A stretch of DNA of 29,070 bases from positions 1 through 29,070 of the IMG/VR virus record IMGVR_UViG_3300024518_001259; one strand, written 5' to 3'. The DNA is from a virus. This document shows, piece by piece, positions 7,095 through 28,978 of the stretch. Position numbers and translations under genes: made by a program. Below the pieces are notes generated by a model. The model did not search any database and had not been told where the DNA came from. It saw only the letters and a list, made by a program, of their open reading frames with translations. The first letter of the stretch is position 1. Each line of letters starts with the position of its first letter.

Positions 7095-8069
7095 ATGCCC
7101 AGTGCAACTTCATACAATACCGTAGGTAATAGAGAAGACATTTTGGATATAGTAGCTACAGTTGATCCTGAAGCCACTCCAATGTTTTCATCTCTTGCAA
7201 AAACACGCAGTCCTAAAGCTCTTAACCTAGAGTGGCAAGCTGACGTTCTTGATAATCCAACCTTTGCTGGTGTAGTAGACGGAACTGATGTTTCGACTTT
7301 CGACAATAAGGCTTCAGGTCGTGTCCGTTTAGGCAATCGTGTCCAGACTTTCCGCCGTCCTTACCAGGTAACACGCCTGCAGGAAATGGTTGAAACAGCT
7401 GGTGTTCCAAGTGAATACGGTCGTTCAAAAGGAAAAGCAATCACTGAACTGAAGATAGACATCGAGTCTGCTTTAGGTTCCGACAACGAATCTCAGATCG
7501 GATCTGGCGCACAGCCTGACCTTCTCCGCGGACTCGGTAAGTGGATTGATTCTTCTAACGCTAACATCGACAGCTCTATTCGGACTCCATCCGGATCTGA
7601 AGGAACTACTTCTACTCTTACAGAAGCTCTTTATAATACGGCTATCCAGTCTACGTATGAAGCAAGTGGTAAGACAGCAAGTTTCCGTCAGTTCAGTGGA
7701 CCTGATCTCCAGAACAAGATTACTAACTTCGCTCGTTTCGAAGGTGCATCTCGTACATCTGCTTTGCAGGTAGTTACTGATAGCACTACTAAAGAGCTAG
7801 TATTCTCAATTACTCGTTATGTTTCCGATTTCGGAACAATCGACGTAATTCCGGATCTATTCTTAGCTCGGACCGAAGGTGCTGCTCTTGCAACTGCAGG
7901 AAAACAGCGTGGTTATCTTATCAATTCAGATATGGTTTCCGTATCTCTTATGGAAAATCCTAATACTTTCGAACTTGAAGATCAAGGCGCAGGTAGACGT
8001 GGATTCGCTGAAGCGGTTTTGACACTTTGTGTTAAGAATCCTAAAGCACTCGGTAAGTTCTCTGGATAA
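7095..8069 (+). CDS. Major capsid protein, SU10 type (HK97 fold)
   Basis: A 324-residue protein building the icosahedral shell. The N-terminus (TVGNREDILDIVATVDPEATPMFSS) is characteristic of the capsid family first seen in phage SU10 and relatives, in which a VGNREDL-type motif is followed by a TP-F/M stretch. Further support comes from the RPYQVTRLQEMVETAG segment and the C-terminal LARTEGAALATAGKQRGYLI region. No N-terminal cleavage domain is evident, consistent with a separate scaffold protein encoded just upstream. The upstream 21 bp are A/T-rich without a clear Shine-Dalgarno sequence. The next gene, separated by 29 bp, has a strong ribosome binding site and probably makes a second abundant head protein. 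Confidence 0.9.
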   Translation: MPSATSYNTVGNREDILDIVATVDPEATPMFSSLAKTRSPKALNLEWQADVLDNPTFAGVVDGTDVSTFDNKASGRVRLGNRVQTFRRPYQVTRLQEMVETAGVPSEYGRSKGKAITELKIDIESALGSDNESQIGSGAQPDLLRGLGKWIDSSNANIDSSIRTPSGSEGTTSTLTEALYNTAIQSTYEASGKTASFRQFSGPDLQNKITNFARFEGASRTSALQVVTDSTTKELVFSITRYVSDFGTIDVIPDLFLARTEGAALATAGKQRGYLINSDMVSVSLMENPNTFELEDQGAGRRGFAEAVLTLCVKNPKALGKFSG

Positions 8070-10118: not shown

Positions 10119-11279
10119 ATGGGATTAGGAGAAGATTTCGTAAGTTTCGCACCACCAAAAGCCACAGACGGAGATGGTTCAGGATTGCCTGACGGTGGAG
10201 AGTTTACAACAGACTCTAGCGCAGGACAGACAGCATTAATCGTAGGAGCTAAGAGTGTAGCTAAGGATGGTTCCACAGCATTCAACCCCCTAGGTGGAGT
10301 TGATTCTGTAAGTATTTTATCAGACGCATCAGCGTCAACTATGCTGGCTACAGGAGCAAGAGCAATTGCAATTGGACATGACGCTACGGCTTCCGATACC
10401 GCATGTATCGCAATAGGAGACAGTGCAGTAGCATCCGAATCTGAAGCTATCGCAATCGGTGCTTATACGCTTTCAACAGACGGCACAGCGACATCAGGAA
10501 CTATAGCAATTGGTTCAGGCACAAGTGGAGTAGATGGAGCAAAAGCAACTGACTCAGAGTGTATCGCAATCGGTGGTTCTGGTAATGGTGGAGCTGCTGC
10601 AATAGCATCCGCTTTTGGGGATGTTGCTATTGGCAATAGATCAGTAGCGTCAGGGACAGGAACATGTGTAGCGATAGGATATTCAGCGACAGCGACAGTT
10701 AATGGTGCAATCGCAATTGGTAACACAGTCGCCTGCGCAGGATCAAAGGCTATTTGTATTGGTCAGGAAACTGACGCATCTTCAAACGCTGTTAGTGGCA
10801 TAGCGATAGGCGGGCATAACTCTGCAAATCAAGGTGCATCAGTAACAGGGGATAACGCAATAGCGATCGGTGCAAACACTGATAATGCAGGGGCGAATGC
10901 CATTGCAATCGGTGGATCGACAACTAGTGCGGCAGGCGCACAGGTAACTGCTGGAGCGAGAGCAGTTGCTTTTGGGGCAGGCGCATCAGCAGGAGCCGCA
11001 GACGCATGGCAGTTTGGTGTAGGGACTAATTCAACTGCGAATAGTTTCCAGTTCAGTGATCTTGGTGGTAAAATCACAAATACCACAGTAGCTCAACCTG
11101 TATTAATACTAGACCAAGATGATGTATCAGAAGAAATGATGGAGTTTGATTGTGCGACAATAGGCACTGGTAATGCAATTGAGGCAATCGCCGCTAAATC
11201 ATTAACAACGACTCACTTTATTAAAGTAACAATCACAGGCGTAGGAACACGATACATTCCAGTAGGAACAATCGCATAA
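10119..11279 (+). CDS. Fibre with YadA/Hep_Hag-like trimeric repeats
   Basis: A 386-residue Gly/Ala/Ser-rich protein. Residues about 82-300 contain thirteen repeats of the pattern A-I-A-I-G-x(n)-A-x-A (for example AIAIGHDATAS, CIAIGDSAVAS, AIAIGANTDNA). This matches the head repeats of trimeric autotransporter adhesins such as YadA, which fold into a left-handed parallel beta-roll trimer. The first ~65 residues probably attach it to the virion, and the C-terminal ~55 (340-386, ending RYIPVGTIA) form a non-repeat cap. There is no signal peptide or autotransporter anchor, as expected for a cytoplasmically assembled phage fibre. It likely binds the host surface or decorates the particle. Repeat assignment is strong; the receptor-binding role is inferred. 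Confidence 0.8.
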   Translation: MGLGEDFVSFAPPKATDGDGSGLPDGGEFTTDSSAGQTALIVGAKSVAKDGSTAFNPLGGVDSVSILSDASASTMLATGARAIAIGHDATASDTACIAIGDSAVASESEAIAIGAYTLSTDGTATSGTIAIGSGTSGVDGAKATDSECIAIGGSGNGGAAAIASAFGDVAIGNRSVASGTGTCVAIGYSATATVNGAIAIGNTVACAGSKAICIGQETDASSNAVSGIAIGGHNSANQGASVTGDNAIAIGANTDNAGANAIAIGGSTTSAAGAQVTAGARAVAFGAGASAGAADAWQFGVGTNSTANSFQFSDLGGKITNTTVAQPVLILDQDDVSEEMMEFDCATIGTGNAIEAIAAKSLTTTHFIKVTITGVGTRYIPVGTIA

Positions 11280-16770: not shown

Positions 16771-17073
16771 ATGGCATTATTATCAACACTAACAGGTGGC
16801 GGTGGAGTCAAGAGTGTGACACGTTACACTTTTGAGGCAGCAGCATTAACGAATAGCACGACAGATTGGTCACAGACAGTCACGATTACAGCAGTCGCTG
16901 ATATGGCTAAGACTAGCGTCAACCTTACAATGGGTGGCACAGCTCACGAAGGTGGCACAGCTAATTATGGCACAATAGGAGTTAGACTCGAATCAACCAC
17001 ATCTGTAGCTTACGTCTTAGGTGCTGTTGGCGGAGTTGAAACATTGGCATTTGAAGTAATAGAATATAATTAA
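16771..17073 (+). CDS. Small fibre-tip-like protein
   Basis: A 100-residue beta-rich protein with a Gly-rich N-terminus (TLTGGGGVKSV) and repeated Thr/Val strands (VTITAVADMAKTSVNLTMGG, IGVRLESTTSVAYVLGAVGG). Its end (LAFEVIEYN) is typical of small phage structural proteins encoded next to fibre genes. It starts without a Shine-Dalgarno sequence and its TAA overlaps the cupin ATG (TAATG). Probably a trimeric tip or fibre accessory; unproven. Confidence 0.55.
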   Translation: MALLSTLTGGGGVKSVTRYTFEAAALTNSTTDWSQTVTITAVADMAKTSVNLTMGGTAHEGGTANYGTIGVRLESTTSVAYVLGAVGGVETLAFEVIEYN

Positions 17074-17531
17074 TGGGTGAAGTAGCCACAGCATTTGATC
17101 AAAAAGATCATAATACGAAGATTGAGGAAGTTGAGAATCAGCTCCTCGACCTACCGCAAGTGGAAGCACCTGTGCGTAATATGTTTGCTCCTGGTGTTTA
17201 TATCAGGGAGATTACAATGTATGCTGGCTCAGTCGTAATAGGACATGAACATAAGACAGAACACTTCAACATCATCCTCACAGGAAAAGCTAAAGTCGTA
17301 CAAGATGATAAGACTTCGATTATTCAGGCTCCAGACATCTTTGTTTCTAAACCAGGTGTCAGGAAAGTTCTTCACATCATTGAAGATATGGTGTGGGCGA
17401 CTGTCCACCCTACTAAAGAAACGGACTTAACTAAGCTCGAAGAAGAGATAATCCAAAAGAGTGATGTATGGTTATACCACGAGAATAATTTAGAGTATAA
17501 TGCTAATAAGGAGCTTACCAATGAATTATAA
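17073..17531 (+). CDS. Cupin-fold protein
   Basis: A 152-residue protein with a cupin barrel. Motif 1 is G57-H-E-H-K-T-E-H-F-N-I-I-L-T-G71, supplying potential metal ligands H58, H60, E63 or H64; motif 2 includes PGVRKVLHIIED and WATVHPT, with H101 or H112 as a possible fourth ligand. Small cupins of this type occur in phage structural regions but their substrate is unknown; they could be metal enzymes or sugar-binding virion parts. It is coupled to the fibre-like gene before it, and its end overlaps the SET-domain gene by 11 bases. The cupin call is strong, the activity is not. Confidence 0.75.
   Translation: MGEVATAFDQKDHNTKIEEVENQLLDLPQVEAPVRNMFAPGVYIREITMYAGSVVIGHEHKTEHFNIILTGKAKVVQDDKTSIIQAPDIFVSKPGVRKVLHIIEDMVWATVHPTKETDLTKLEEEIIQKSDVWLYHENNLEYNANKELTNEL
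17508..17513 (+). promoter_or_regulatory. Ribosome binding site fixing the SET-gene start
   Basis: AAGGAG lies seven bases before the ATG at 17521. It shows that 17521, not the in-frame ATG at 17500, is the likely start. It lies within the 3' end of the cupin gene. Confidence 0.8.
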
Positions 17532-17919
17532 AGATTTCCTAAAGAACAATGGGATGACTGAGAATAAAGTCGTCCAATTCATGAGTATTCTTCCTGAGCC
17601 CGAACTTCCTGCTGAGGGAGATCACGTGTATCCTATCTTTTCTAAGATACAGGGAATAGGATTAGCTTCTAAGTTAGCCTTCAATGAAGGTGATACAGTT
17701 CTTACTTTATTAGATAACACAAAAAGGCAAGTAGGTGCTAGGTATTTAAACCACACACACAAACCAAACACTAAAGCAGTGATCTCTGAGAAAAATTTAC
17801 TAGCAATAGCAACCCGACCTATTTCAGTCGGAGAAGAGATCACCATATGCTACAATGAAAACGTCGTAGCATCTAGGGAATACACAAAAATATTTTTAAA
17901 TAAACAAAACAAGGATTAA
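17521..17919 (+). CDS. SET-domain protein, putative lysine methyltransferase
   Basis: A 132-residue protein covering a minimal SET domain. N-terminal SET motif: FSKIQGIGLASKLAFNEGD (about 40-58), like the usual GxGxxAxxxIxxGE. Central motif: RYLNHTHKPNTKA (74-86), matching the RxxNHSxxPN consensus with N77 and H78. C-terminal motif: AIATRPISVGEEITICYNE (95-113), matching A(T)R-I-x-x-GEE(L/I)TxxY with Y111 as the catalytic-type tyrosine. SET enzymes transfer methyl groups from S-adenosylmethionine to protein lysines. No long substrate-binding insert is present. The target is unknown; a virion protein or host factor is possible. The strong ribosome binding site supports real expression. Confidence 0.8.
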   Translation: MNYKDFLKNNGMTENKVVQFMSILPEPELPAEGDHVYPIFSKIQGIGLASKLAFNEGDTVLTLLDNTKRQVGARYLNHTHKPNTKAVISEKNLLAIATRPISVGEEITICYNENVVASREYTKIFLNKQNKD

Positions 17920-17921
17920 TT

Positions 17922-19085
17922 ATGAGTTGGGCAGCAGTAGCAGTAGTAGGTGTAGCAGCAGTAGCAGGAACATCAGCGTATCTTGCAAGTGAAGCGGAAG
18001 AAGAAGGTCGTGAGGATGCCACTAAAAAGACAGAGAACTTTGGATTCGCTGAAGAGGTATCGACACGAGGTATTAATCTTAGACGTTACGAAGCTTTCCC
18101 ACGTATCCTTGAAACACATAGAGATTTTGATAAACAGTTCTTCGCACAAAAAGCAGCACAAGTTGAGAGAGCAGATTCATTCCGTAGACGTGTTACTGAA
18201 GAAGACATCATCCCAGGCATCATGCGTGATCGTGAACAAATGTTCGCAGGAGATGTTAAACAATTTAACCAGCAGTTAAACCAGCAGGGAGGAGCATTCC
18301 GTGAGGGGCTCCTTAATATGTCCCCAGAGCTACGTTCTGCAGGGTATGGAGTTCAGGCTCAAGATGCTTTACTAGCTAAACTTTATGGACAAGCTCAAGA
18401 TGACCTAGATCGTGGAGGAAATCTTTCAGCTGAAGGAAATAGGGCAGTAGAGCAGGGAACTGCATCTGCAGTAGGACAAAGAGGTCGTGGAGCAGGAGCA
18501 TTTGGCGTAGGTCAACTAGCTCTCAATAGAGAATCAGCTCGTCAAGGTAGGGAAGATCGTTCTCGACAGTTTGCAGGACAAGTATTTGGTATGGGAGGAG
18601 AGTCACAGAGACGTAACCTTTTACAAGCTTCTCAGTTCACTAGCCCATTCTTGAACATGCTTTCACAATCACAGGCAGCAAATAGGCAGGCAGCAGGAAC
18701 ACCTTCACAGGCATTCACTCAGAACGCACAGTTCGCTGCTCATGCTACACCTGATGTTCCAGTATTTGATCCTAACGTAATGAACCTCGAACAGATGCGT
18801 TTAGGTATCGCTACTAACAATGCTAATGCAGCAATCCAAGGTGGTGTCAATCGTGGTCAATATATAGAAGGAGCTGGAGCAGCAATCTCATCAGCCTTCA
18901 CAGGTGGGATGAGTGGCCCAATCGCAGGGTATGGATCAGCAGCAGCAGGTTCAGGTGGTAATTCAGCTGCATTTTCAGATCCATCAACAGGTGGAGTGAT
19001 GGGACCAACAGGTCAACCTTTAATGCAAGGACCAGCCAACGCAAACTGGGGCGGATACCAAGGCGGAGCAAGTGTATTAGTTTAA
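17922..19085 (+). CDS. Internal virion (ejection) protein with N-terminal hydrophobic helix
   Basis: A 387-residue protein. Residues 3-22 (WAAVAVVGVAAVAGTSAYLA) form a strongly hydrophobic helix, followed by charged helices and a Gln/Ala/Gly-rich C-terminal half (GQRGRGAGAFGVGQLAL, GGMSGPIAGYGSAAAGSGG). This layout is common among podovirus internal proteins ejected with the DNA to form a conduit through the envelope. It is the first of three successive large genes of that type. It has an acceptable AAGGA six bases upstream of its ATG. No enzyme motif was recognised. Confidence 0.65.
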   Translation: MSWAAVAVVGVAAVAGTSAYLASEAEEEGREDATKKTENFGFAEEVSTRGINLRRYEAFPRILETHRDFDKQFFAQKAAQVERADSFRRRVTEEDIIPGIMRDREQMFAGDVKQFNQQLNQQGGAFREGLLNMSPELRSAGYGVQAQDALLAKLYGQAQDDLDRGGNLSAEGNRAVEQGTASAVGQRGRGAGAFGVGQLALNRESARQGREDRSRQFAGQVFGMGGESQRRNLLQASQFTSPFLNMLSQSQAANRQAAGTPSQAFTQNAQFAAHATPDVPVFDPNVMNLEQMRLGIATNNANAAIQGGVNRGQYIEGAGAAISSAFTGGMSGPIAGYGSAAAGSGGNSAAFSDPSTGGVMGPTGQPLMQGPANANWGGYQGGASVLV

Positions 19086-19107: not shown

Positions 19108-20982
19108 GCAGGACAATATTTAGCAGCAGCCGGAAGGCAAGCAGGACAACAGATCGCAGCAGCACAGCAGGAGCGTCACAATCGTCGTATCCAGCAAAGA
19201 GCCTTTGAAGTAAAGAAAGAGAAGGAACAATACAATCGCCTGATCCAGCAAAGAGATCTTGAAATGAAAGACAAGCAGCTCGACTTCGAACGGCGTCGAG
19301 TTAAGGTCCAAGAAGACACTTTGGCGTATAACGAGAGGCTTGCAGAGAATGTGTTATTAAAAAAAGCGCAAGACCAACGAAACTTCGCTTCGATGATAAA
19401 CAAGATCCACGGTAAAACAGGAGGAGCTGAAGCAGTATCGCCAACCTACCAGTTAGATTCCCAACCACTTGAACAACCTTCTGAGCTAAGTTTCCAAAAC
19501 ACTCCTGGAGTAGACCTCACAAGTGTTTTAGGAACACCTCGTGATGAAAACCAATTTGATCCAAAAACAGGAGAGTTTCTAGGAGAGGTCCCAACCACTC
19601 CCACTAAAGAAACAACCCTTGTAGGAGGGATAGATGACGCACCTCAAGAAGTGTTAGCAGCAGGAGAGCTTTTAAGAAGCCACCTAGCTGAATCAGGAGA
19701 GTTAGCAGGTAACGTTGATTTATATTCAACAAGTATCCCTGAACTATTTGAAAATGTCGGTAAGAAGATCTCTGAAGAGAAGAAAGGAGTCCGAGGCAGA
19801 GGGGGAGCAGTCGCTGTCTTAGAAAGATACGCCGCACAAATGGCTTCAGAAAAGACATCAGACCCTGAAGAACAAGTTAAAATTGCAAAAGAAATTATCG
19901 AAGGGATTAAAGAAGGTAAGCTTCCTAAAAGGACTCTCCAATTCCAAGAATTCACTTCCCCTATAGGTCCTGAAAAAGAACCTATTCCTAGTTTAGATAG
20001 ATTCATGTCGGACGATGCCCTCATACAAACTGACGGGAGCTTACTTGAAGGCGTTGGTCCTGATGGATTACCTTACTCTGATTCGACAGCTTTCCCGAAA
20101 GGAACCGACCAAGTAGTTAATCGCACAATGCTTACTCCAGGATCTCCAGCCGTAGAACCTACAAGCCTAGCCGACCGAGTAGGAGGGATGGAGTCTCTAG
20201 CAATGTTAGAAGAAGATTTTGCGGAACTCCCTAAAGATATGCAGGAGAGCCTGGTTAAAAAAGCTATTGAACATGATGAAAAGAATTCAATCGACGCTTC
20301 ACTTAAACGCAGAGCTTTAATAGCTAATACTAAGACCGCAGTCGCTAACGCTGCTCGCACGGAGAGGAAAAACTACATCGAAGCTCAGAATATGGGTTCT
20401 CTATCTGAGGCAGACCAGAAGAGAGTTGTCCCGATATTTGATGGACAGATGGCCACGAATAGCACTGAAGCTACGAATGTGAATGAATCGGCGGTATCCG
20501 TCCTCACCGCTGTCCCGAAGATTAACGAGCTACTGCATATAGTAGAAACTTTTGACATGGCAGATTATGCAGACCCTGCTAAACTATCAGAACTACGTGG
20601 ACGTATTGGAACACTGAAAGGATTCTTGATCGGAGATTTACGCCTACCTTTAGTAGGACCAGGAGCACTGTCTCAGGCTGAGTTAGATATTCTTAATAGT
20701 ATTGTGAGAGATCCTACTCAATTCCTTTCAATGAAGGAAGGTAACAGGTCTTCATTACAATCACTTAAAGCTAAGATTGCTGATAGTTTCTTAGTCAAAG
20801 CTAAGGTTGCGGGGATTAAAGATCTTAATAAGATGGACCCTGAACTCAAGAAGTTAGTTGAAACATCTAAGAACTACGTGAGATATTATGACTCCGCAGA
20901 ACAGGCGGCACAAGCTGGGTTAGAAGACGGAACTCGTGTCCACATTCCTGGTAAAGGAGTCGGAATCTACAAAAAGAGATAG
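19105..20982 (+). CDS. Internal virion (ejection) protein, coiled-coil N-terminus
   Basis: A 625-residue protein. The first ~85 residues are a Gln/Arg/Lys/Glu-rich coiled coil (RIQQRAFEVKKEKEQYNRL, LQDFERRRVK-like spacing). The middle is acidic and Pro-rich, and the C-terminal third has conserved-looking helices (LRGRIGTLKGFLIGDLRL, then LSQAELDILNSIVRDPTQFL) of a kind found in internal proteins of other podovirus-like phages. It probably forms part of the ejected DNA conduit or the internal core. There is no signal peptide or obvious catalytic site. It carries the strong ribosome binding site shared with the decoration gene. The next gene starts seven bases after its stop. Confidence 0.65.
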   Translation: MAGQYLAAAGRQAGQQIAAAQQERHNRRIQQRAFEVKKEKEQYNRLIQQRDLEMKDKQLDFERRRVKVQEDTLAYNERLAENVLLKKAQDQRNFASMINKIHGKTGGAEAVSPTYQLDSQPLEQPSELSFQNTPGVDLTSVLGTPRDENQFDPKTGEFLGEVPTTPTKETTLVGGIDDAPQEVLAAGELLRSHLAESGELAGNVDLYSTSIPELFENVGKKISEEKKGVRGRGGAVAVLERYAAQMASEKTSDPEEQVKIAKEIIEGIKEGKLPKRTLQFQEFTSPIGPEKEPIPSLDRFMSDDALIQTDGSLLEGVGPDGLPYSDSTAFPKGTDQVVNRTMLTPGSPAVEPTSLADRVGGMESLAMLEEDFAELPKDMQESLVKKAIEHDEKNSIDASLKRRALIANTKTAVANAARTERKNYIEAQNMGSLSEADQKRVVPIFDGQMATNSTEATNVNESAVSVLTAVPKINELLHIVETFDMADYADPAKLSELRGRIGTLKGFLIGDLRLPLVGPGALSQAELDILNSIVRDPTQFLSMKEGNRSSLQSLKAKIADSFLVKAKVAGIKDLNKMDPELKKLVETSKNYVRYYDSAEQAAQAGLEDGTRVHIPGKGVGIYKKR

Positions 20983-20989
20983 TAATAGT

Positions 20990-23900
20990 ATGCCTATAGA
21001 ATACGCTGACCAGAAATCTGTTCATTCTCTAGGAGGAGGATACATTGAATTCGATGATGACGCTACTGGAGAAGGTGGAGGTTATATCGAATTTGAGAAT
21101 CAAGTTATGGACCGTAGGTTTGAAACTCCTGACCCACGGAAGCAGTCATTCACTGAATTTAAGTTGATGAAGTCTCGTGAGGCAGATACGTCCCTATATG
21201 AAGATGCTACTGAGTTTATGAACGGGGTAGCAACAGGGATAGGGCAACTATTCCGGATGGGAATGAACGCTACAGAGGAGGGGTATGAAGCTATCCAGCG
21301 TGGTGAATATGATAAACTAGCTATGTCTGGAGTAGAAGGAGTAGCTAAAGGAATCTTTGATACAACAAACTTAGCAGAATCTATTGCGGGGAACGTAGGA
21401 GACTATTTTGTAGATGATGAAACTGCTTTGTTCAGACAGTTCTCTCGTGCTAAAGAAGAGAGGGATGATTTTGAAACTCGTGAAGCAGGTTTAGTATTTG
21501 ATCAAGAGCAGACATTTAAGAATTTAACAGAGGTAGGAAGTGTTGTATTAGATCCACTTAATTTAATAGGGTTAGGACTAACTTCAAAAGTAGCTAAAGC
21601 TTCTAAACTTGGACAGACAGCAATCAAAGCGGGGAACCTTTTAGACATGCCAGCTAACCTGACACGTAAAGCATTACGAGGAAGTCTTAAAGGAGGAGCT
21701 AAAGGAGCAGCTATCTTAGCATCAGCTTCTGCAAAACCTCTCCGTGTTTTATCAAAAGGAGCCGAGAAAGCTGAGAACATTATAGGTATCCCTAATGATG
21801 CTATCACTGGAGTTGTATCTAAAACTCTTGGCATCTCTCCTTCAGATGCAGGACTTTTAAGACACGCAACTCCTGTAGGACAGTTAGCTACACCGCTAGC
21901 ACCACTTGCTACAGCTGAACTTGGAGCGAAAGCTGCAAAGATAGGACTTGGTGGAGCAGCAAACTTAGCTGACGACGCTGCAGCATTATTTAATGCGTTA
22001 GGAGACCCATCTAGGCAACTACGTTTTATCGAAAAAGCTATCCAAGATAAATCAATTTCACCTGCTACTAGAAAAGCGTTATCAATTGCTGGTTCAGGTG
22101 GAACTAAAGCAATGGATCTAGCATTCAACTCTCTTTCCAATGGTGCATCCGCAGCATCCCTTCAGGGAATCTTCGCTGCAATGGCTGGACAGAATCCTAA
22201 TGAAGTAGGTCAAGCAGTTGGGACAGGTTTAGCATTTGGTGGAGTCATGCCATTTGGTCCTAAAGGAGGAGCTGATCAAGCTGCACGGGACAAAGGAAGT
22301 ATCTCATATCTCCAAGCTAAGTTTAGTAAAGACCAGATGGATAACTTTAACAAGCTCCCTGATAACTCTCAGAAGTTAGTAGCATCTTTACTAGAATCTG
22401 GGATTGAAGCTAATGTCATTCTCCAGGATAAGAAAACTTTTACTGATACATACAACAGGGAGTCTGGGCAGAGCGTCAAGAGTCTCGACACCGCGGGGTT
22501 TATCGCTGAGAACGGTAGCATCTTCGTAAACAGTGACGCTAAGAGTGTAGACATTGACTCAGTTGTGCTACATGAAGTAGGACACAGAGTAGCTAGGGAA
22601 ATGGTATTAGAAAACCGTGGAGGTTCTATTGTAGGACTCCGTAATGAGATCCTTAAAGACTTTCAAAGCCCCACTGGAACTGAACTCACTACCACATCTG
22701 GAGCTAAAGTAAAAGTAGGTGGAGTTTTAGAGAAATTTTACAAAGACTATAACAGCCAAGTCGCCGATCAACATAAGATAAAAGATGCTGATACTCTAGT
22801 TGATGAGTATTTAGCAGACAGCCTGGGTGTTCTGTTTGACGAAACTGATTTCAATGCGGTCGAAGCTATGCGAAAGACCCCTGGAACGCTCGAAATGTTA
22901 AGCAGAACATCCCATGCTATGCTCTCAAAGTTGGGGTTGGTTGATCCAGAGACAGGAGGGAAGATGAAAAACTTCACACCTATCTCGAAGTCACTGGTTA
23001 AGAATCCAATGATCCAAAGAGCATTGAAGAATCATGCATCTTTAGATAAAGCAATTGAACTCCATGCAGGAGATCGTGCTAAATCGGTCAAGAGGAGGTC
23101 TGGTCAGTCTGATGAATCTGTTATAAGAGGTCAAGATGTAGATCCAGGAGAAGTATTTATAGCCAGTGATCTTGATATCTCTCAACCTGGTGTGAAGAAG
23201 ATCGTAGGTAATTATTTTAATAACACAATTGTCGAACCACGTCAAGCTGCTCCAGGTAAAACAGGAGAGAACATTGGATCTGTTATCGCTGACAGCTACT
23301 TTGACGCAGTCGGAGCAACTCCCACAATGAGGAGAGTCGCTACGGGATTTGAGAAAGCTATTGCTGAAGTAGGTTCTGTTAAGTTCTGGAAGAAGAAAGG
23401 CAAGAATGACTTCCAAGTTAAAGAAGGTGTCCCATTTGGTTTCATTATCAATCAGAGTAATGGTAACATATCTGTTAAGTATTGGAACCAATTAAACCTG
23501 AACAAATTACTTTCTGATCTGAAATCAAAAGGGTTAATAGATTCTGTTAAGAGTATGCAGACCCAGATTGAAGCAGCACGTCAACGTAATGCACAAGGTC
23601 AGAACATATCAAATGAAAAGATTGCTGCTCTATTCGGAGCATTACCTGATACCCTATCTACGAAAGATGCTAAGTCGATTGCGATGTTAGCTCAGAAGCG
23701 TGGAGGAGTATTCGAGCAGGTGTCTATTAAAGATATTAGAGCATTCAAGGACCACAATACACCAGGCATGGGAGTGAGACACTACAATGCACTGATGAAT
23801 ATGCGTCCTGATGGAGGGGTTCCTGTTAATGGTGGCGATAAGACTCACTCTGCAATCAACGAAGGACTTAATGTTTCTTCTGTAAATGAAGGGGGACACT

Positions 23901-24835
23901 TGATAGAAATGGAAGTCCAGACACCAGATGGGAGAGGAAATCTGCGAGCAGGGGCTGCAGACGATAACAAATCTGTCTTAATATCCGACTCATACCTTCC
24001 TGATGACCTCCAGGATACTGGACTCGGAACTAAAATGTATTCTGAGTTGATCGATCAATCTTTTAAAGAAGGGTTTGACGTTGTGTATTCAGACTCAACC
24101 GTTTCTCCAAGTGCAGACCGTGTGTATCAATCCCTTAAAAAACAAGGGTATTCTGTCATACCTGATCCATCAGTAACGACGAAGGGGACTGACAAAGTAT
24201 CTAAGAAAGCCGTCTACGCAGTGGTGGCGGATAAAGAGACTAACCCTAACTTCGTGAATAAGGAAGTATCTACTAAAGCAACTTCCTCAATCGCAGATGG
24301 CCTCTTAGCAGATAGGACTCAAGTGGTTGATAATATCAAACAGTCACTCGACTCAAGGGAGAACACCTTGTTTGACTTATCGATGGAAGACCTACGCTCT
24401 GATATAAGTAAATCAGGATTTTTTACTCACGGTGGAGGGATCGGTGTTAAAAAGAACAAAGCTAAATTTTCTAAAAGAGTTAAAAAAGCTGTCCCCGACA
24501 TCACGGTAGGGCAAGTGAACGACATCTACAATATGGTTTCTATAGCAGTCCGTGACGGGAGGACTCATTTTAAAAAGAATAACTTAGTAGAAAACAAAGT
24601 CACTCAACTCAGGAAAAAGATCAATGCGAGGGGGGATAAACCTGATGGGATCGTGTGGTCTAACTTTGATGAGAGTGATGTAGAAATTTTTAAAGTAGGG
24701 GATAAGGATATAAAAGACGTTCTACAAAGCATAGAAAAAGTAGGGGTAGATAAATTTCGAATCTACGAAGATTCTTTTAACAGAATTGTAATCAAAGAGA
24801 AAGAAAAAATACCAAACCCCTACCACCTAATCTAA
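20990..24835 (+). CDS. Giant internal virion protein with zincin and GNAT-like domains
   Basis: 1281 residues from the ATG at 20990; a GTG at 20936 would overlap the previous gene. Two GGGYIEF repeats lie at 15-21 and 29-35. Residues about 180-440 are Ala/Gly-rich amphipathic helices, as in membrane-penetrating ejection proteins. A zinc-peptidase motif HEVGH is at 528-532 (after IDSVVL), with DEYLAD at 605-610 offering E606 as a possible third ligand. Around residues 970-1080, LQDTGLGTKMYSELIDQSF and SDSTVSPSADRVYQSLKKQG fit the acetyl-CoA-binding motif of GNAT acetyltransferases. The likely role is a multi-domain protein ejected into the host at infection, locally degrading or modifying targets. 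Domain motifs are seen; activities are not proven. No lysozyme or transglycosylase motif was seen. Confidence 0.75.
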   Translation: MPIEYADQKSVHSLGGGYIEFDDDATGEGGGYIEFENQVMDRRFETPDPRKQSFTEFKLMKSREADTSLYEDATEFMNGVATGIGQLFRMGMNATEEGYEAIQRGEYDKLAMSGVEGVAKGIFDTTNLAESIAGNVGDYFVDDETALFRQFSRAKEERDDFETREAGLVFDQEQTFKNLTEVGSVVLDPLNLIGLGLTSKVAKASKLGQTAIKAGNLLDMPANLTRKALRGSLKGGAKGAAILASASAKPLRVLSKGAEKAENIIGIPNDAITGVVSKTLGISPSDAGLLRHATPVGQLATPLAPLATAELGAKAAKIGLGGAANLADDAAALFNALGDPSRQLRFIEKAIQDKSISPATRKALSIAGSGGTKAMDLAFNSLSNGASAASLQGIFAAMAGQNPNEVGQAVGTGLAFGGVMPFGPKGGADQAARDKGSISYLQAKFSKDQMDNFNKLPDNSQKLVASLLESGIEANVILQDKKTFTDTYNRESGQSVKSLDTAGFIAENGSIFVNSDAKSVDIDSVVLHEVGHRVAREMVLENRGGSIVGLRNEILKDFQSPTGTELTTTSGAKVKVGGVLEKFYKDYNSQVADQHKIKDADTLVDEYLADSLGVLFDETDFNAVEAMRKTPGTLEMLSRTSHAMLSKLGLVDPETGGKMKNFTPISKSLVKNPMIQRALKNHASLDKAIELHAGDRAKSVKRRSGQSDESVIRGQDVDPGEVFIASDLDISQPGVKKIVGNYFNNTIVEPRQAAPGKTGENIGSVIADSYFDAVGATPTMRRVATGFEKAIAEVGSVKFWKKKGKNDFQVKEGVPFGFIINQSNGNISVKYWNQLNLNKLLSDLKSKGLIDSVKSMQTQIEAARQRNAQGQNISNEKIAALFGALPDTLSTKDAKSIAMLAQKRGGVFEQVSIKDIRAFKDHNTPGMGVRHYNALMNMRPDGGVPVNGGDKTHSAINEGLNVSSVNEGGHLIEMEVQTPDGRGNLRAGAADDNKSVLISDSYLPDDLQDTGLGTKMYSELIDQSFKEGFDVVYSDSTVSPSADRVYQSLKKQGYSVIPDPSVTTKGTDKVSKKAVYAVVADKETNPNFVNKEVSTKATSSIADGLLADRTQVVDNIKQSLDSRENTLFDLSMEDLRSDISKSGFFTHGGGIGVKKNKAKFSKRVKKAVPDITVGQVNDIYNMVSIAVRDGRTHFKKNNLVENKVTQLRKKINARGDKPDGIVWSNFDESDVEIFKVGDKDIKDVLQSIEKVGVDKFRIYEDSFNRIVIKEKEKIPNPYHLI

Positions 24836-24836
24836 T

Positions 24837-27002
24837 CTAATCCGTAATCTTCCACAGTCGGAATCCCTTCCGTCCTTTTACTGTTACGTTACGGTCTATC
24901 CAATCAGCTCCCTGACTTTCCAGTCTCTTGATAGCATTACCTAAGCTTCGATTGTTCACACCTTCTAGGACCTTCTTACCACCACCGTCACCAGTGAATA
25001 GCTGCTCGATGTTATGCATCAGCTCTATCAAACTACCATGCCAGAAGTCCTCCTTCGTCTCGTATAGGAAATACTCTCTCCTCCACTTATCGATGATCTC
25101 TTCTATTGGAGCATACTCTGACATAGAACGAGCTTCTTCCATTAGGGAAGGTTCGATGAATGCTTTAACTGTGAACCGTGAAGCTCCTATCACTTCCTTA
25201 TTAGGAACGTAGTCATACAACCAACGTGCGAAGTATTGCAACTCCTTCTCGATAACATCTTCTACATTTGCAGGGAACGTAAAGTTCTCCAACTCATCAG
25301 CGCACTTTAATATCAGCACCTTATCAACATTGGACATATCCATATTGGGTAGAGTTGCCATACTCTCAGCGTCAGTGTTACACGTCACAATGATCTTCCC
25401 TAACCATAGTAATTCCATCGGTCCTTTATACATCTTCCGGTATGAGATAGAGTGGTTCGCTATTACTTTCTTAAGGATAGCAGCAAACTTATTCCTCTGC
25501 TGTTGAGATGTTGTGTTCTCTTGGTCGTCAATTGTAGCCAGACCTGTAGTGATAATGTTCTCATTAAATGGTTCTGTCCCCATGAAGTAACCACTCGCCA
25601 CTGAATGACCTCCCAATAGTTTAGACATCAGGAATGTGCTGAACAATGTCTTACCAATCCCAGTGCCTCCCACTAAGAATAGGCATGGAAGCTTAATAGG
25701 CTTCCCCAACTTAGCACTGCGGAAAGCATGATGCATCCAAGCGAATAGGTAATCCTTCTGCTGAGGCGTAGACTTATGCAGTATACACAACAACCAAGCA
25801 GCAATGAATGGGAAGTTCTCTCCCCATTTCTGCGGTTCCTCTGCCATAGCATGAGCGAAGCATGTATTAGTGTTCAGGTATATTTTACCATCCCTCCTTA
25901 CAATGGGTTGATCACTATACAAGGTCGGCATCAACCCATTCACTCGGTTATGTGTCTCGATGTGGGTCAATGCACACTTAACTTCACTGGGTATCCCATT
26001 GATCGAACGGCTTGAGAGGTTAAAATTCACTTCCAGGAATCTTTTAATCACCTCTGTGCCATCGTCAAGCCACTCATTATGCTCAGTCCCATCCTTCTTT
26101 CGGTAGTAACTCTTCCCATCAAAGTATAATCCTGCTACAGATCCCCCGATACGATTAGCTTGATGCCTCCGAACAAAAGAAGATCCGAGCATACGCTCAT
26201 CACTCCAAGGTAAGAACCCTCCACCGTCAGCAAAGAATTGTATCCCCTGTGGATGAAGCACTGCAGAGTTAGGAACACTCTTAGCATCCCTACCGTCCAA
26301 CATCCAGAAGCATGGACCACGAGAGCCGAAGCTGAAGTTCGTCCACATCCCAGGATAGGTTTCATCCATCCCAGTTTGTATAGCTTCTATTGGTAATGAT
26401 GGATGACCATCTGAGAAGCCGGAGGTAGATGCCGATACTTCATACTGTATATGGTGAAGTAAGTTTGCTTCTACAGGTTGGACCGCTTCAAAGGCTTTCC
26501 AATTAGTTCCTAGTTCATAGTATTGTGATTCCTCACTGATGCATTTATCCAATCCAGGTAGAAGCTTATCTATCTTTGCAACTTTCTTAAAATATGCAAT
26601 GAATTTCTTGAACAATGTCTTGGTAAAGAAGGAGATCGGCTCCTCGAATACCCAGATTAATCTAATACCACCGCTGAACGTAGATGATATGTATGATGGT
26701 TTGTAATCAATCGCCCAACGTTTCTTTATCCCTGCAATCGCTTCGTCGATGTCCATCTCTGCATCGTAATCCGCTACGATCCCGTGCAGCTTTATCGCAT
26801 CGTTCGATTTCGATACTCTGACATGGGGGTTTAGCCCTTCGATTGCCGAGAAAAATACGTGGTCCGTGTCGTCGCATGATGCCCAGTTAAGATATTCCTT
26901 CTTGGAAGGAAAGTCTGGTCGTGGTGTTCGGTTGACGAGGTCTGTTACACATATCTCTGTTGTTTTTGATGATTTAAGGTTGGCAATATAATATAGTTTC
27001 AT
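24837..27002 (-). CDS. Primase-helicase (AEP-type primase plus SF3/D5-like helicase)
   Basis: 721 residues from the ATG overlapping the polymerase stop (ATGA at 27002-26999). The N-terminal part has features of archaeo-eukaryotic primases: an acidic pair in LHGIVADYDAEM (D78 and D80) and STFSGGIRLIWVFEE (107-121). The C-terminal ATPase has Walker A GGTGIGKT (445-452), Walker B ATIDDQEN (489-496) and a sensor-like KIIVTCNTD (536-544), as in virus D5/superfamily 3 helicases. It would synthesise primers and unwind DNA at the phage fork next to the polymerase. A longer in-frame start upstream adds 19 residues inside the polymerase gene and is less likely. Helicase assignment is strong, primase assignment moderate. 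Confidence 0.8.
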   Translation of the reverse strand: MKLYYIANLKSSKTTEICVTDLVNRTPRPDFPSKKEYLNWASCDDTDHVFFSAIEGLNPHVRVSKSNDAIKLHGIVADYDAEMDIDEAIAGIKKRWAIDYKPSYISSTFSGGIRLIWVFEEPISFFTKTLFKKFIAYFKKVAKIDKLLPGLDKCISEESQYYELGTNWKAFEAVQPVEANLLHHIQYEVSASTSGFSDGHPSLPIEAIQTGMDETYPGMWTNFSFGSRGPCFWMLDGRDAKSVPNSAVLHPQGIQFFADGGGFLPWSDERMLGSSFVRRHQANRIGGSVAGLYFDGKSYYRKKDGTEHNEWLDDGTEVIKRFLEVNFNLSSRSINGIPSEVKCALTHIETHNRVNGLMPTLYSDQPIVRRDGKIYLNTNTCFAHAMAEEPQKWGENFPFIAAWLLCILHKSTPQQKDYLFAWMHHAFRSAKLGKPIKLPCLFLVGGTGIGKTLFSTFLMSKLLGGHSVASGYFMGTEPFNENIITTGLATIDDQENTTSQQQRNKFAAILKKVIANHSISYRKMYKGPMELLWLGKIIVTCNTDAESMATLPNMDMSNVDKVLILKCADELENFTFPANVEDVIEKELQYFARWLYDYVPNKEVIGASRFTVKAFIEPSLMEEARSMSEYAPIEEIIDKWRREYFLYETKEDFWHGSLIELMHNIEQLFTGDGGGKKVLEGVNNRSLGNAIKRLESQGADWIDRNVTVKGRKGFRLWKITD

Positions 27003-28960
27003 TTGCAATAGTGGTCGGTTTCTATTATGTCGACATCGAGGGGCATGTCTGTAGCCCACTCAGGAGAGGTCATTATTATATTACGTATCTCTACAGCCGA
27101 TACACTTTTGTCTACTTCTATTATGTATTCATCGTATACATGCCAGATTACTGGGTGTCCAGCTTTTTCTAAAGCGAGTAATCGATCAGCGAATACTTCA
27201 CGAGCATTTGCTTGGCACTCATTCTCCACAAGTTTCCCACCGTATAGACGTTCTTGCCTACTTGGAAGAGAAACGATCCCTTTTTGGAAGCCCGCAGAAA
27301 CATCGAAATATTTATATGTCCGTCCGGACATAAGCTTCACAATCATATCACTGTCGTCAGCTAATTTCATCTGCTTCTCCCTGTCTGCCCACAGTTTAAT
27401 GATGTGGAGATTGGTAGCACGGAACTTTTTAACCTGGAGCCACGAGTTCACCCATATGTTTTTCTTCTTACGGTCAAATGAGTCAAAAGCTTTAGCCTTC
27501 TCATCATTACCACGTCCATATCGTAAAGCAGATTTGAATTTCTTCTCCTCCTCTTCTTTAACATCAGCTGTGAAGATTAGATCGAAGTCACTCTGTGGTA
27601 TATACATAGGGGCCATATATATGAACTTCTCCCATCCTGCACCGTAACCTAATGCTAGAACACGAGCTTTAGCAAATGCATACATCGTAGGGTTTTCACT
27701 CTTTAGGACACCTCCTGTCCAACCCATTGTGATTCGAGCATGAGCTTCGTATGGTGACATCCCTTCTCTCATCAGGTCCAGCATCTTGAAGTCGCCAGCC
27801 ATATGTGCCATGCAGCGAGGTTCAATCTGTGCCAAGTCAGCAATGATATACTTCTTACCTTTCGTAGGGGTGAACAGAGATCTGAATGACATCTCTTCTC
27901 CCTGAAAAGTGTAAGGAGCTTTGATTAAGTTCAGCATGTTGACACCCTTTGGAGTCTCATCATCAGAAGTGTATCCACGTTTACCTGCCCAACGTCCTGT
28001 GTGAGCTCCAAAGTAAAGGAGCTCGTGTTCCATTCTACCATCAGGTCTAAGCCGTTGTTCAATAGCCTGAGATAATCTAAACAACCTATTCACTTTACGT
28101 AGCTCTTGGATGATCTTAATCAATGGGAATGATTCTCCATGCTCAGCTTCCCATGCTTGGAACTCAGGTGATTTGACATCCGTAGACTCAGGCATTGGAA
28201 CACCTGCATCACGAGCAGCTTTAGCTAACTCACTTGGTGATGTCAATGGTTTCAATCTTGGCTCTCCCCCCTTCATCCTAACTCTACCTGTCGGCGTGAG
28301 TTCAGTCTCTCCAGACCAAGGGATCTCAGACTCAAGTTCCCATACACGTTTGCCTAAGTTTTTAATCCATCTGTGCAGCTTGTCGGTATCGATACCAACT
28401 CCACGCTCAGTGATCAGGGTTGTGTGCTGAGATAGTTCTCTCTCATGCTCAGGCCATTTCTCTTGGAACTTTTTCCAGAACTTCAGAGCCAACCGAGCAT
28501 CATCCATCGCATACTTTTGCAATCCTCTCTTCTTCTCGTCATTCAGCTCATGATATTGGACCCCACACATATCAGATCGCACCGTCTTATCCATAGTGTG
28601 ATCCATGAATTGTTTAGTAGCACCAGCTAATGATCTGGGTCCCTGAATGTATACAGCCAGGTCAGCAGTGTTCATCCAGCATAGTGGGCGTGCTTTGATG
28701 TTGTGGATCTCAGCGATACGTTCAAACACGAACTTATCAAATGTCACATTATGTGCTACCCATATGTGACCGTCAATCTGTTCCCAGGGAAATGTGACAG
28801 GGTCGCTATATATACAGAAATTATTAGTAGCAATGGCCACCAGGTAGGGATCAAATTTCTCATGATTTACATAGTGGTAGTAGCTCATGTTAGCTACGGA
28901 ATATTCTTTGTCGTAGTATGTCTCGAAGTCGATACATACAGCAGGAGTATCTAAGTTCAT
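26999..28960 (-). CDS. Family A DNA polymerase with 3'-5' exonuclease
   Basis: 653 residues from the ATG at 28960; AAAGG seven bases upstream supports it over an in-frame TTG two codons earlier. The exonuclease has Exo I D11/E13 (CIDFETYY), Exo II D75 (AHNVTFDKF) and Exo III Y150/D154 (YAMDDARL). The polymerase has TGRWAGKRG (about 321-329), motif A DLAQIEPR (375-382; the usual form is DYSQIELR), motif B FAKARVLALGYGAG (429-442) and motif C VYDEY (608-612; D610, E611). The position matching E. coli Pol I Phe762 is Leu435. There is no 5'-3' exonuclease domain, as usual for phage enzymes. It replicates phage DNA with proofreading, coupled to the primase-helicase downstream. Confidence 0.92.
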   Translation of the reverse strand: MNLDTPAVCIDFETYYDKEYSVANMSYYHYVNHEKFDPYLVAIATNNFCIYSDPVTFPWEQIDGHIWVAHNVTFDKFVFERIAEIHNIKARPLCWMNTADLAVYIQGPRSLAGATKQFMDHTMDKTVRSDMCGVQYHELNDEKKRGLQKYAMDDARLALKFWKKFQEKWPEHERELSQHTTLITERGVGIDTDKLHRWIKNLGKRVWELESEIPWSGETELTPTGRVRMKGGEPRLKPLTSPSELAKAARDAGVPMPESTDVKSPEFQAWEAEHGESFPLIKIIQELRKVNRLFRLSQAIEQRLRPDGRMEHELLYFGAHTGRWAGKRGYTSDDETPKGVNMLNLIKAPYTFQGEEMSFRSLFTPTKGKKYIIADLAQIEPRCMAHMAGDFKMLDLMREGMSPYEAHARITMGWTGGVLKSENPTMYAFAKARVLALGYGAGWEKFIYMAPMYIPQSDFDLIFTADVKEEEEKKFKSALRYGRGNDEKAKAFDSFDRKKKNIWVNSWLQVKKFRATNLHIIKLWADREKQMKLADDSDMIVKLMSGRTYKYFDVSAGFQKGIVSLPSRQERLYGGKLVENECQANAREVFADRLLALEKAGHPVIWHVYDEYIIEVDKSVSAVEIRNIIMTSPEWATDMPLDVDIIETDHYCK

Positions 28961-28978
28961 CTCCAAACCTTTCTATAG

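What the first reader, a model, noticed from the sequence alone, without database searches (positions are those of the whole stretch)
17073..17919. Cupin and SET-domain methyltransferase pair in the virion gene block
Seen: a minimal SET domain with RYLNHTHKPN and GEEITICY motifs, overlapping an upstream cupin with GHEHKTEH. Known: SET enzymes methylate lysines, and cupins can be Fe-dependent oxygenases. Inference: the pair may write and read, or reverse, a modification on virion or host proteins; being among fibre and ejection genes, virion proteins are plausible targets.
Basis: partly seen in the sequence, partly recalled or inferred. Interest (0 to 1): 0.75.

Follow-up and report, generated by a model that had tools for sequence, protein, structure and literature searches.

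The report
Phage cupin–SET methyltransferase partner genes
This short-tailed-phage-like genome fragment carries, just before a gene for a DNA-ejection-type protein, a cupin-fold gene paired with a small SET-type protein methyltransferase; hundreds of other phage sequences carry the same two parts fused into one protein, so they almost certainly work together, probably during virus assembly, but what they methylate is unknown.

Summary
Window 17073-17531 is a cupin-fold protein. Window 17521-17919 (true start 17521, 132 aa, own AAGGAG Shine-Dalgarno) is a SET domain with all core motifs. The pairing is not chance. The cupin matches the N-terminal half and the SET the C-terminal half of one phage family, phrog_34170. 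Of 80 viral loci found with SET-derived patterns alone, 79 have SET in one reading frame with this cupin. The last has both genes about 25 kb apart in one contig. A few loci have the reverse order. The window's adjacent separate genes are a rare arrangement, and its SET is the most divergent member found. The cupin alone is more widespread and sits directly before the first ejection/internal-core gene, the slot of T7 gene 13 and P22 gene 14. Both domains are under strong purifying selection in fused relatives (dN/dS about 0.07). The SET SAM/catalytic residues are invariant or nearly so. The cupin metal ligands are not conserved and there is no HX(D/E)...H triad, so the proposed 'write and reverse' chemistry is not supported. 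Best reading: an assembly-slot cupin that docks an accessory lysine methyltransferase acting during virion morphogenesis. The substrate is unknown.

The parts
17073..17531 (+). cupin-fold protein (152 aa); relative of phrog_12032/phrog_24280 ('short tail fiber'/'tail fiber adhesin') and of the N-terminal half of phrog_34170
   Evidence: four His H58, H60, H64, H101 in TM1459-like register
17508..17513 (+). Shine-Dalgarno AAGGAG for the SET gene, inside the cupin reading frame, 7 nt before ATG 17521
   Evidence: the only AAGGAG-N7-ATG in the window; 0.28 expected on both strands of 29 kb
17521..17919 (+). SET-domain methyltransferase (132 aa), overlapping the cupin stop by 11 bases; pre-SET helices (about residues 2-22), GxG 45-47, NH 77-78, PN 82-83, E106, catalytic-type Tyr111
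17922..19085 (+). protein with the small hydrophobic Ala/Gly-rich N-terminus typical of the ejection/internal-core (P22 gp7 / T7 gp14-like) genes that follow the cupin gene in relatives
   Evidence: sequence and position; no Pfam or PHROG match of its own and no BLAST link to the main downstream cluster
16771..17073 (+). small upstream gene of the tail region, stop overlapping the cupin start (TAATG)
   Evidence: no family match

Best explanation
The pair is a two-part late-gene protein module. The cupin is a podovirus-type assembly factor whose gene sits just upstream of the first ejection/core protein gene, the slot of T7 gene 13 and P22 gene 14. The SET protein is a translationally coupled, S-adenosylmethionine-dependent lysine methyltransferase that works with the cupin. 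In most relatives the two are one polypeptide, so the cupin most likely acts as the docking/oligomerising half that brings the SET enzyme to its substrate during head and ejection-module assembly. Shown: fold, intact SET motifs, co-occurrence in several gene arrangements, purifying selection in fused relatives, genomic slot. Inferred: catalytic activity, late/assembly function, and a phage-encoded protein (virion/ejection protein, or the cupin itself) as substrate.
For: The cupin and SET match the two halves of phrog_34170. All 8 phage records with this SET have it in one protein with this cupin (5 distinct phages). SET-pattern scan: 79 of 80 loci in one frame with the cupin, the 80th has both genes in one contig. 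20 of 20 checked SET records carry both halves. All four genome-collection loci holding the full SET family are fused to the cupin. Five loci have SET before cupin, so the tie survived rearrangement. N77, H78 and E106 are invariant; Y111 is Tyr in all rows that reach it, also in rows lacking the search pattern. dN/dS medians 0.067 (cupin) and 0.077 (SET) in 44 pairs of fused relatives. In 249 loci an ORF follows the gene at once, most often overlapping by 4 nt; 168 of 199 distinct downstream proteins form one homology cluster. T7 gene 13 and P22 gene 14 occupy the same slot, and the T7 gp13 homologue of phage phiPsa17 was not among its 11 detected particle proteins (PMC4517105), which fits an assembly helper rather than a virion part.
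Against: No experiment is known. No SET-specific conserved lysine in the neighbouring ejection protein: no column with more than 45% Lys, and Lys is even rarer in the SET group. The slot argument is positional only; no homology between the cupin and T7 gp13 or P22 gp14 was found. Most cupin-only phages checked lack the SET altogether, so the methyltransferase is not essential to the module. The window SET has lost several otherwise near-invariant family residues (for example R64L, T70Q, D110C, R112N) and is a very long branch.
Confidence: 0.5

Rival explanations
1. The SET enzyme is active but its targets are host proteins (for example translation or nucleoid proteins, or a defence component) modified late in infection or after ejection; the cupin is the targeting or dimerising part.
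For: In record G007 the SET gene lies far from the cupin gene, beside ParB-like and DNA-methylase genes. SET is an optional, repeatedly gained or lost add-on (8-10 changes on the cupin tree), as host-interaction genes often are. No lysine signature in the ejection protein.
Against: Nearly all members are physically joined to a late assembly-slot protein placed directly before the ejection gene. No match in the PADLOC defence library.
Confidence: 0.25
2. The SET half is a structural, non-catalytic domain; the cupin-SET protein is a minor virion component such as a short tail fibre, as PHROG labels suggest.
For: PHROG names for the cupin are 'short tail fiber protein' and 'tail fiber adhesin'.
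Against: The motifs that bind SAM and do catalysis are the most conserved positions across 78 sequences, the pattern of an enzyme. For the label itself, the one paper checked (phage X14) gives no mass-spectrometry evidence.
Confidence: 0.13
3. One reading: the SET enzyme methylates lysine and the cupin is an Fe-dependent oxygenase that reads or removes the mark.
For: The cupin fold is shared with oxygenases. The window copy has four His in the TM1459 arrangement, and cupin dioxygenases appear among fold matches.
Against: No HX(D/E)...H triad in the family. Ligand positions 58, 60 and 101 vary widely, including Q/A/K and Y, in the SET-fused majority.
Confidence: 0.06
4. The separate genes in the window are an artefact: a single-base error or recent frameshift in an ordinary fused cupin-SET gene.
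For: The frames differ by +1 and the junction falls where fused proteins have their linker; almost all relatives are fused.
Against: A consensus AAGGAG with 7-nt spacing precedes the SET ATG, while only 7 of 170 fused genes show any SD-like site plus start codon in the linker. The cupin groups with cupin-only relatives (SH-aLRT 89, not starred), and the SET is far diverged from fused ones.
Confidence: 0.08

Closest known systems
phrog_34170 (e.g. Pseudoalteromonas phage PH1 gp49, Rhodoferax phage P26218 gp30)
   Same: the same two domains, the same place before the ejection-protein gene; the window genes match its two halves
   Different: one fused gene there, two overlapping genes here; family annotated 'unknown function'; about 32-42% identity to members per domain
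phrog_12032 / phrog_24280 / PHA00672 cupin proteins of podoviruses (Vibrio VvAW1, VPMS1, Thalassomonas BA3, Shewanella X14)
   Same: the cupin half and its genomic slot
   Different: no SET partner in these phages
vSET (PBCV-1 A612L) and SET domains of MLL1, SETD8, SMYD3
   Same: SET fold, GxG, NHxxxPN, GEExTxxY motifs; vSET is a similarly small, stand-alone viral SET
   Different: histone/eukaryotic-protein targets; no cupin partner; here short pre-SET helices and a C-terminal helix in place of pre/post-SET zinc domains
TM1459 (4-His Mn cupin) and CENP-C/Mif2 cupin domains
   Same: cupin fold; HxHxxxH...H in the window copy; CENP-C/Mif2 cupins show a non-enzymatic dimerisation use of the fold
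   Different: the His set is not conserved in the phage family; extra N- and C-terminal helices
T7 gp13 (PF11090, 'probable scaffold protein Gp13') and P22 gp14 (PF11039)
   Same: small protein encoded directly upstream of the first ejection/core protein
   Different: no sequence homology found; neither family was found in the window or in the cupin-carrying phage records searched

Membership tests
SET-domain protein lysine methyltransferases | SET fold | tested here: met
   Pfam PF00856 35.9 bits; model pLDDT 89; Foldseek vSET E 5e-7; VIA Z 10.3, 2.4 A over 84 residues (SETD8)
SET-domain protein lysine methyltransferases | GxG, NHxxxPN and GEExxxxY cofactor/catalytic motifs | tested here: met
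   G45/G47, N77 H78 P82 N83, E106, Y111 present; invariant or nearly so in 78 sequences
SET-domain protein lysine methyltransferases | SAM-dependent lysine methylation | not testable with these tools
   needs an assay
phage cupin-SET family (phrog_34170) | homologous cupin N-half and SET C-half including the pre-SET segment | tested here: met
   phrog_34170 E 2e-27 (cupin) and 6.5e-10 (SET, profile 158-279); SET HMM without the window 62.5 bits over 2-127
phage cupin-SET family (phrog_34170) | single fused polypeptide | tested here: not met
   two overlapping genes in different frames with an own SD site
cupin superfamily | double-stranded beta-helix barrel | tested here: met
   model pLDDT 96; Foldseek best E 5e-7; VIA Z 10.3, 2.2 A over 86 residues (HP0902); TM1459 variant Z 9.2
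Fe(II)/2-oxoglutarate oxygenases (JmjC type) | HX(D/E)...H facial triad | tested here: not met
   window H58-E59-H60; position 60 is H 55, Q 37 of 96 and never D/E
TM1459-type 4-His cupins | HxHxxxH...H metal site | tested here: inconclusive
   all four His in the window copy but in no other of 93 non-redundant relatives; metal content not testable here
T7 gp13 / P22 gp14 assembly proteins | sequence homology to PF11090 or PF11039 | tested here: not met
   no match of either family in the window record or in the cupin-carrying phage records; only position is shared

The most novel reading that the evidence does not exclude
Many short-tailed phages use a dedicated protein-lysine methyltransferase, tethered to a cupin assembly factor encoded beside the ejection-protein genes, to methylate a virion or ejection protein as a maturation step. 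This would be a SET-type post-translational modification built into bacteriophage assembly.
Probability: 0.3. Interest if true: 0.78.

Novelty: new variant of a known kind. Interest (0 to 1): 0.55.

Why it matters
SET enzymes are best known from eukaryotic chromatin. Here a small SET enzyme is tied, in some hundreds of viral contigs (405 candidate relatives), to an uncharacterised but widespread phage protein encoded at the T7 gene 13 / P22 gene 14 position. No paper on the combination was found in the held library. If active, it would make lysine methylation a testable part of phage assembly or takeover. Isolated phages that carry it (Pseudoalteromonas PH1, Rhodoferax P26218) exist for direct tests.

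Tried and rejected
Single-protein scan with the window SET in viral contigs found nothing, because the window SET is too divergent; profile scans worked. Lysine signature in the downstream ejection protein: none. Possible fused extra domains in cupin-only loci looked like GC-rich read-through rather than real domains. Second stand-alone SET candidate L353: its record has no phrog_34170 match and no SET ORF at the site; rejected as a pattern match inside an unrelated protein. GNAT nature of T7 gp13 and P22 gp14: not established; T7 gp13 gives only weak GNAT hits at E 0.39. Defence-system role: no PADLOC match. Rfam and the sigma-70 promoter scan were not run. The tree method was the quick one, so branch placements, above all of the long SET branch, are uncertain. 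A few calls failed for wrong coordinates or a short search term; those that mattered were repeated.

Full report
WHAT IS THERE. The window holds a cupin ORF at 17073-17531 (152 aa) and a SET ORF whose listed start is 17500 but whose likely start is ATG 17521: AAGGAG lies at 17508-17513 with 7 nt spacing, and this is the only such site in the window. The SET start overlaps the cupin stop by 11 bases, typical of translational coupling. Pfam SET scores 35.9 bits against a cut-off of 22.4; the cupin is below Pfam's cut-off (20.7 vs 27.2) but matches phrog_12032 at E 3e-38. AlphaFold models are confident (SET pLDDT 89, cupin 96). The SET model's best Foldseek match is the small viral vSET (E 5e-7), and VIA-align gives Z 10.3 to SETD8 and 9.6 to vSET. 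The cupin matches many cupins, including TM1459 (also profile E 0.005-0.008).

THE PAIRING IS REAL. The window cupin hits the N-terminal half and the window SET the C-terminal half of one PHROG family, phrog_34170. In the phage record collection every record with this SET (8 records, 5 distinct phages) has it in one protein with the cupin. A profile scan of IMG/VR found 405 stretches encoding relatives of the fused protein (these were matched by cupin or SET patterns). A second scan, with patterns from the SET alone, kept 80 loci: 79 have SET in one reading frame with the cupin. The remaining one (L195, record G007) has a stand-alone SET and, about 25 kb away, a separate cupin of the same family. 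Twenty of 20 checked SET-bearing records contain both halves. In the bacterial/archaeal genome collection, only the four loci with the full SET family, including its pre-SET segment, were fused to the cupin; the other bacterial SET proteins score lower, align in broken pieces where checked, and have no cupin. The order is reversed (SET then cupin) in five loci (L126, L140, L276, L280, L281; in L276 the SET reading frame is broken). So the association has survived fusion, reversed order, adjacency (window) and separation (G007).

WHERE THE WINDOW SITS. On a tree of 93 cupins the window falls with nine cupin-only relatives (SH-aLRT 89, not starred), away from the main fused clade of 43; presence of SET needs about 10 changes on the tree. 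The window SET is the most divergent member (end branch 5.7; best identity 33%), with family residues such as R64, T70, D110 and R112 replaced by L, Q, C and N (numbering of the 132-aa protein). This suggests, but does not prove, that the adjacent arrangement arose independently of the common fusion. A frameshift artefact in a fused gene cannot be fully excluded, but only 7 of 170 fused genes show any SD-like site plus start codon in the linker.

ENZYME STATUS. Over 78 non-redundant SET sequences N77, H78, E106 and G47 are invariant, G45, R74 and N83 nearly so, and Y111 is Tyr in all 77 that reach it; among 23 sequences that lack the search pattern covering this region, Y111 is Tyr in all 22 that reach it. 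In 44 pairs of fused relatives dN/dS is about 0.07 for both halves. This is the signature of a working enzyme; activity itself is not shown, and for the window copy no close relative was available for such a test.

THE CUPIN IS PROBABLY NOT A DEMETHYLASE. The HX(D/E)...H triad is absent. The positions equivalent to TM1459's ligands are H58 (58/96), H60 (55/96, otherwise mostly Q), H64 (80/96) and residue 101 (mostly Tyr). Only the window copy among 93 has His at all four, so metal binding is possible here but is not what the family conserves. The most conserved cupin residues are R45, G71, G95, W108, Y43 and F38.

WHERE IT ACTS. The cupin or cupin-SET gene is followed at once, most often with a 4-nt overlap, by a gene for a protein with a small hydrophobic N-terminus; 168 of 199 distinct downstream proteins form one homology cluster, annotated 'DNA ejection' or 'internal virion protein' in named phages. 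The window's own downstream protein shares the position and N-terminal style but is too diverged to join that cluster. T7 gene 13 and P22 gene 14 hold the same place, and neither family was found in the window or the cupin-carrying phage records searched. In the T7-like phage phiPsa17 the gp13 homologue was not among the 11 proteins found in particles (PMC4517105), which suggests that products of this slot help assembly rather than stay in the virion. This is an argument by position, not homology. A search for a conserved substrate lysine in the ejection protein was negative.

CONCLUSION. Observation confirmed. Functional coupling of cupin and SET: very likely (about 0.93). Active SET methyltransferase: likely for the family (about 0.85), somewhat less for the divergent window copy. 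Role in virion assembly with a phage protein as substrate: the best single reading, about 0.5, inferred. The reverse-the-mark role for the cupin: unlikely (about 0.06). No paper describing the combination was found in the held library; it exists so far only as an unannotated PHROG and as scattered database labels.

Noticed in passing
window 20936-24835 (+): 1299-aa ORF with no Pfam, PHROG or PDB match; contains HEVGHRVAREMV, a zinc-metalloprotease-like motif, and a stretch (DLQDTGLGTKMYSELIDQSFKEGFDVVYSD...VYQSLKKQGYSVIP) that reads like a GNAT acetyltransferase core; probably a large ejected virion protein (motif reading by eye).
   Followed up: partly
window 7095-8069 (+): Major capsid protein of the SU10 type (PF17236, E 3e-48), although the neighbourhood of the pair resembles P22/T7-like podoviruses.
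   Followed up: no
window 10119-11279 (+): Protein rich in repeated AIAIG motifs, matching YadA head repeats (PF05658): an adhesin-like fibre.
   Followed up: no
window 24837-28966 (-): Two overlapping reverse-strand replication genes: a DUF5906 protein with a Walker-A-like motif and a family A DNA polymerase.
   Followed up: no
L276 2646-3423: SET-cupin gene in reversed order with a frame break inside the SET part; decayed gene or sequencing error.
   Followed up: partly
L006 137-574 (Sphaerotilus phage vB_SnaP-R1): A GNAT acetyltransferase gene (PF00583, 34.1 bits) close to the head-tail connector gene of a cupin-only phage; the virion block carries another possible protein-modifying enzyme.
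   Followed up: no
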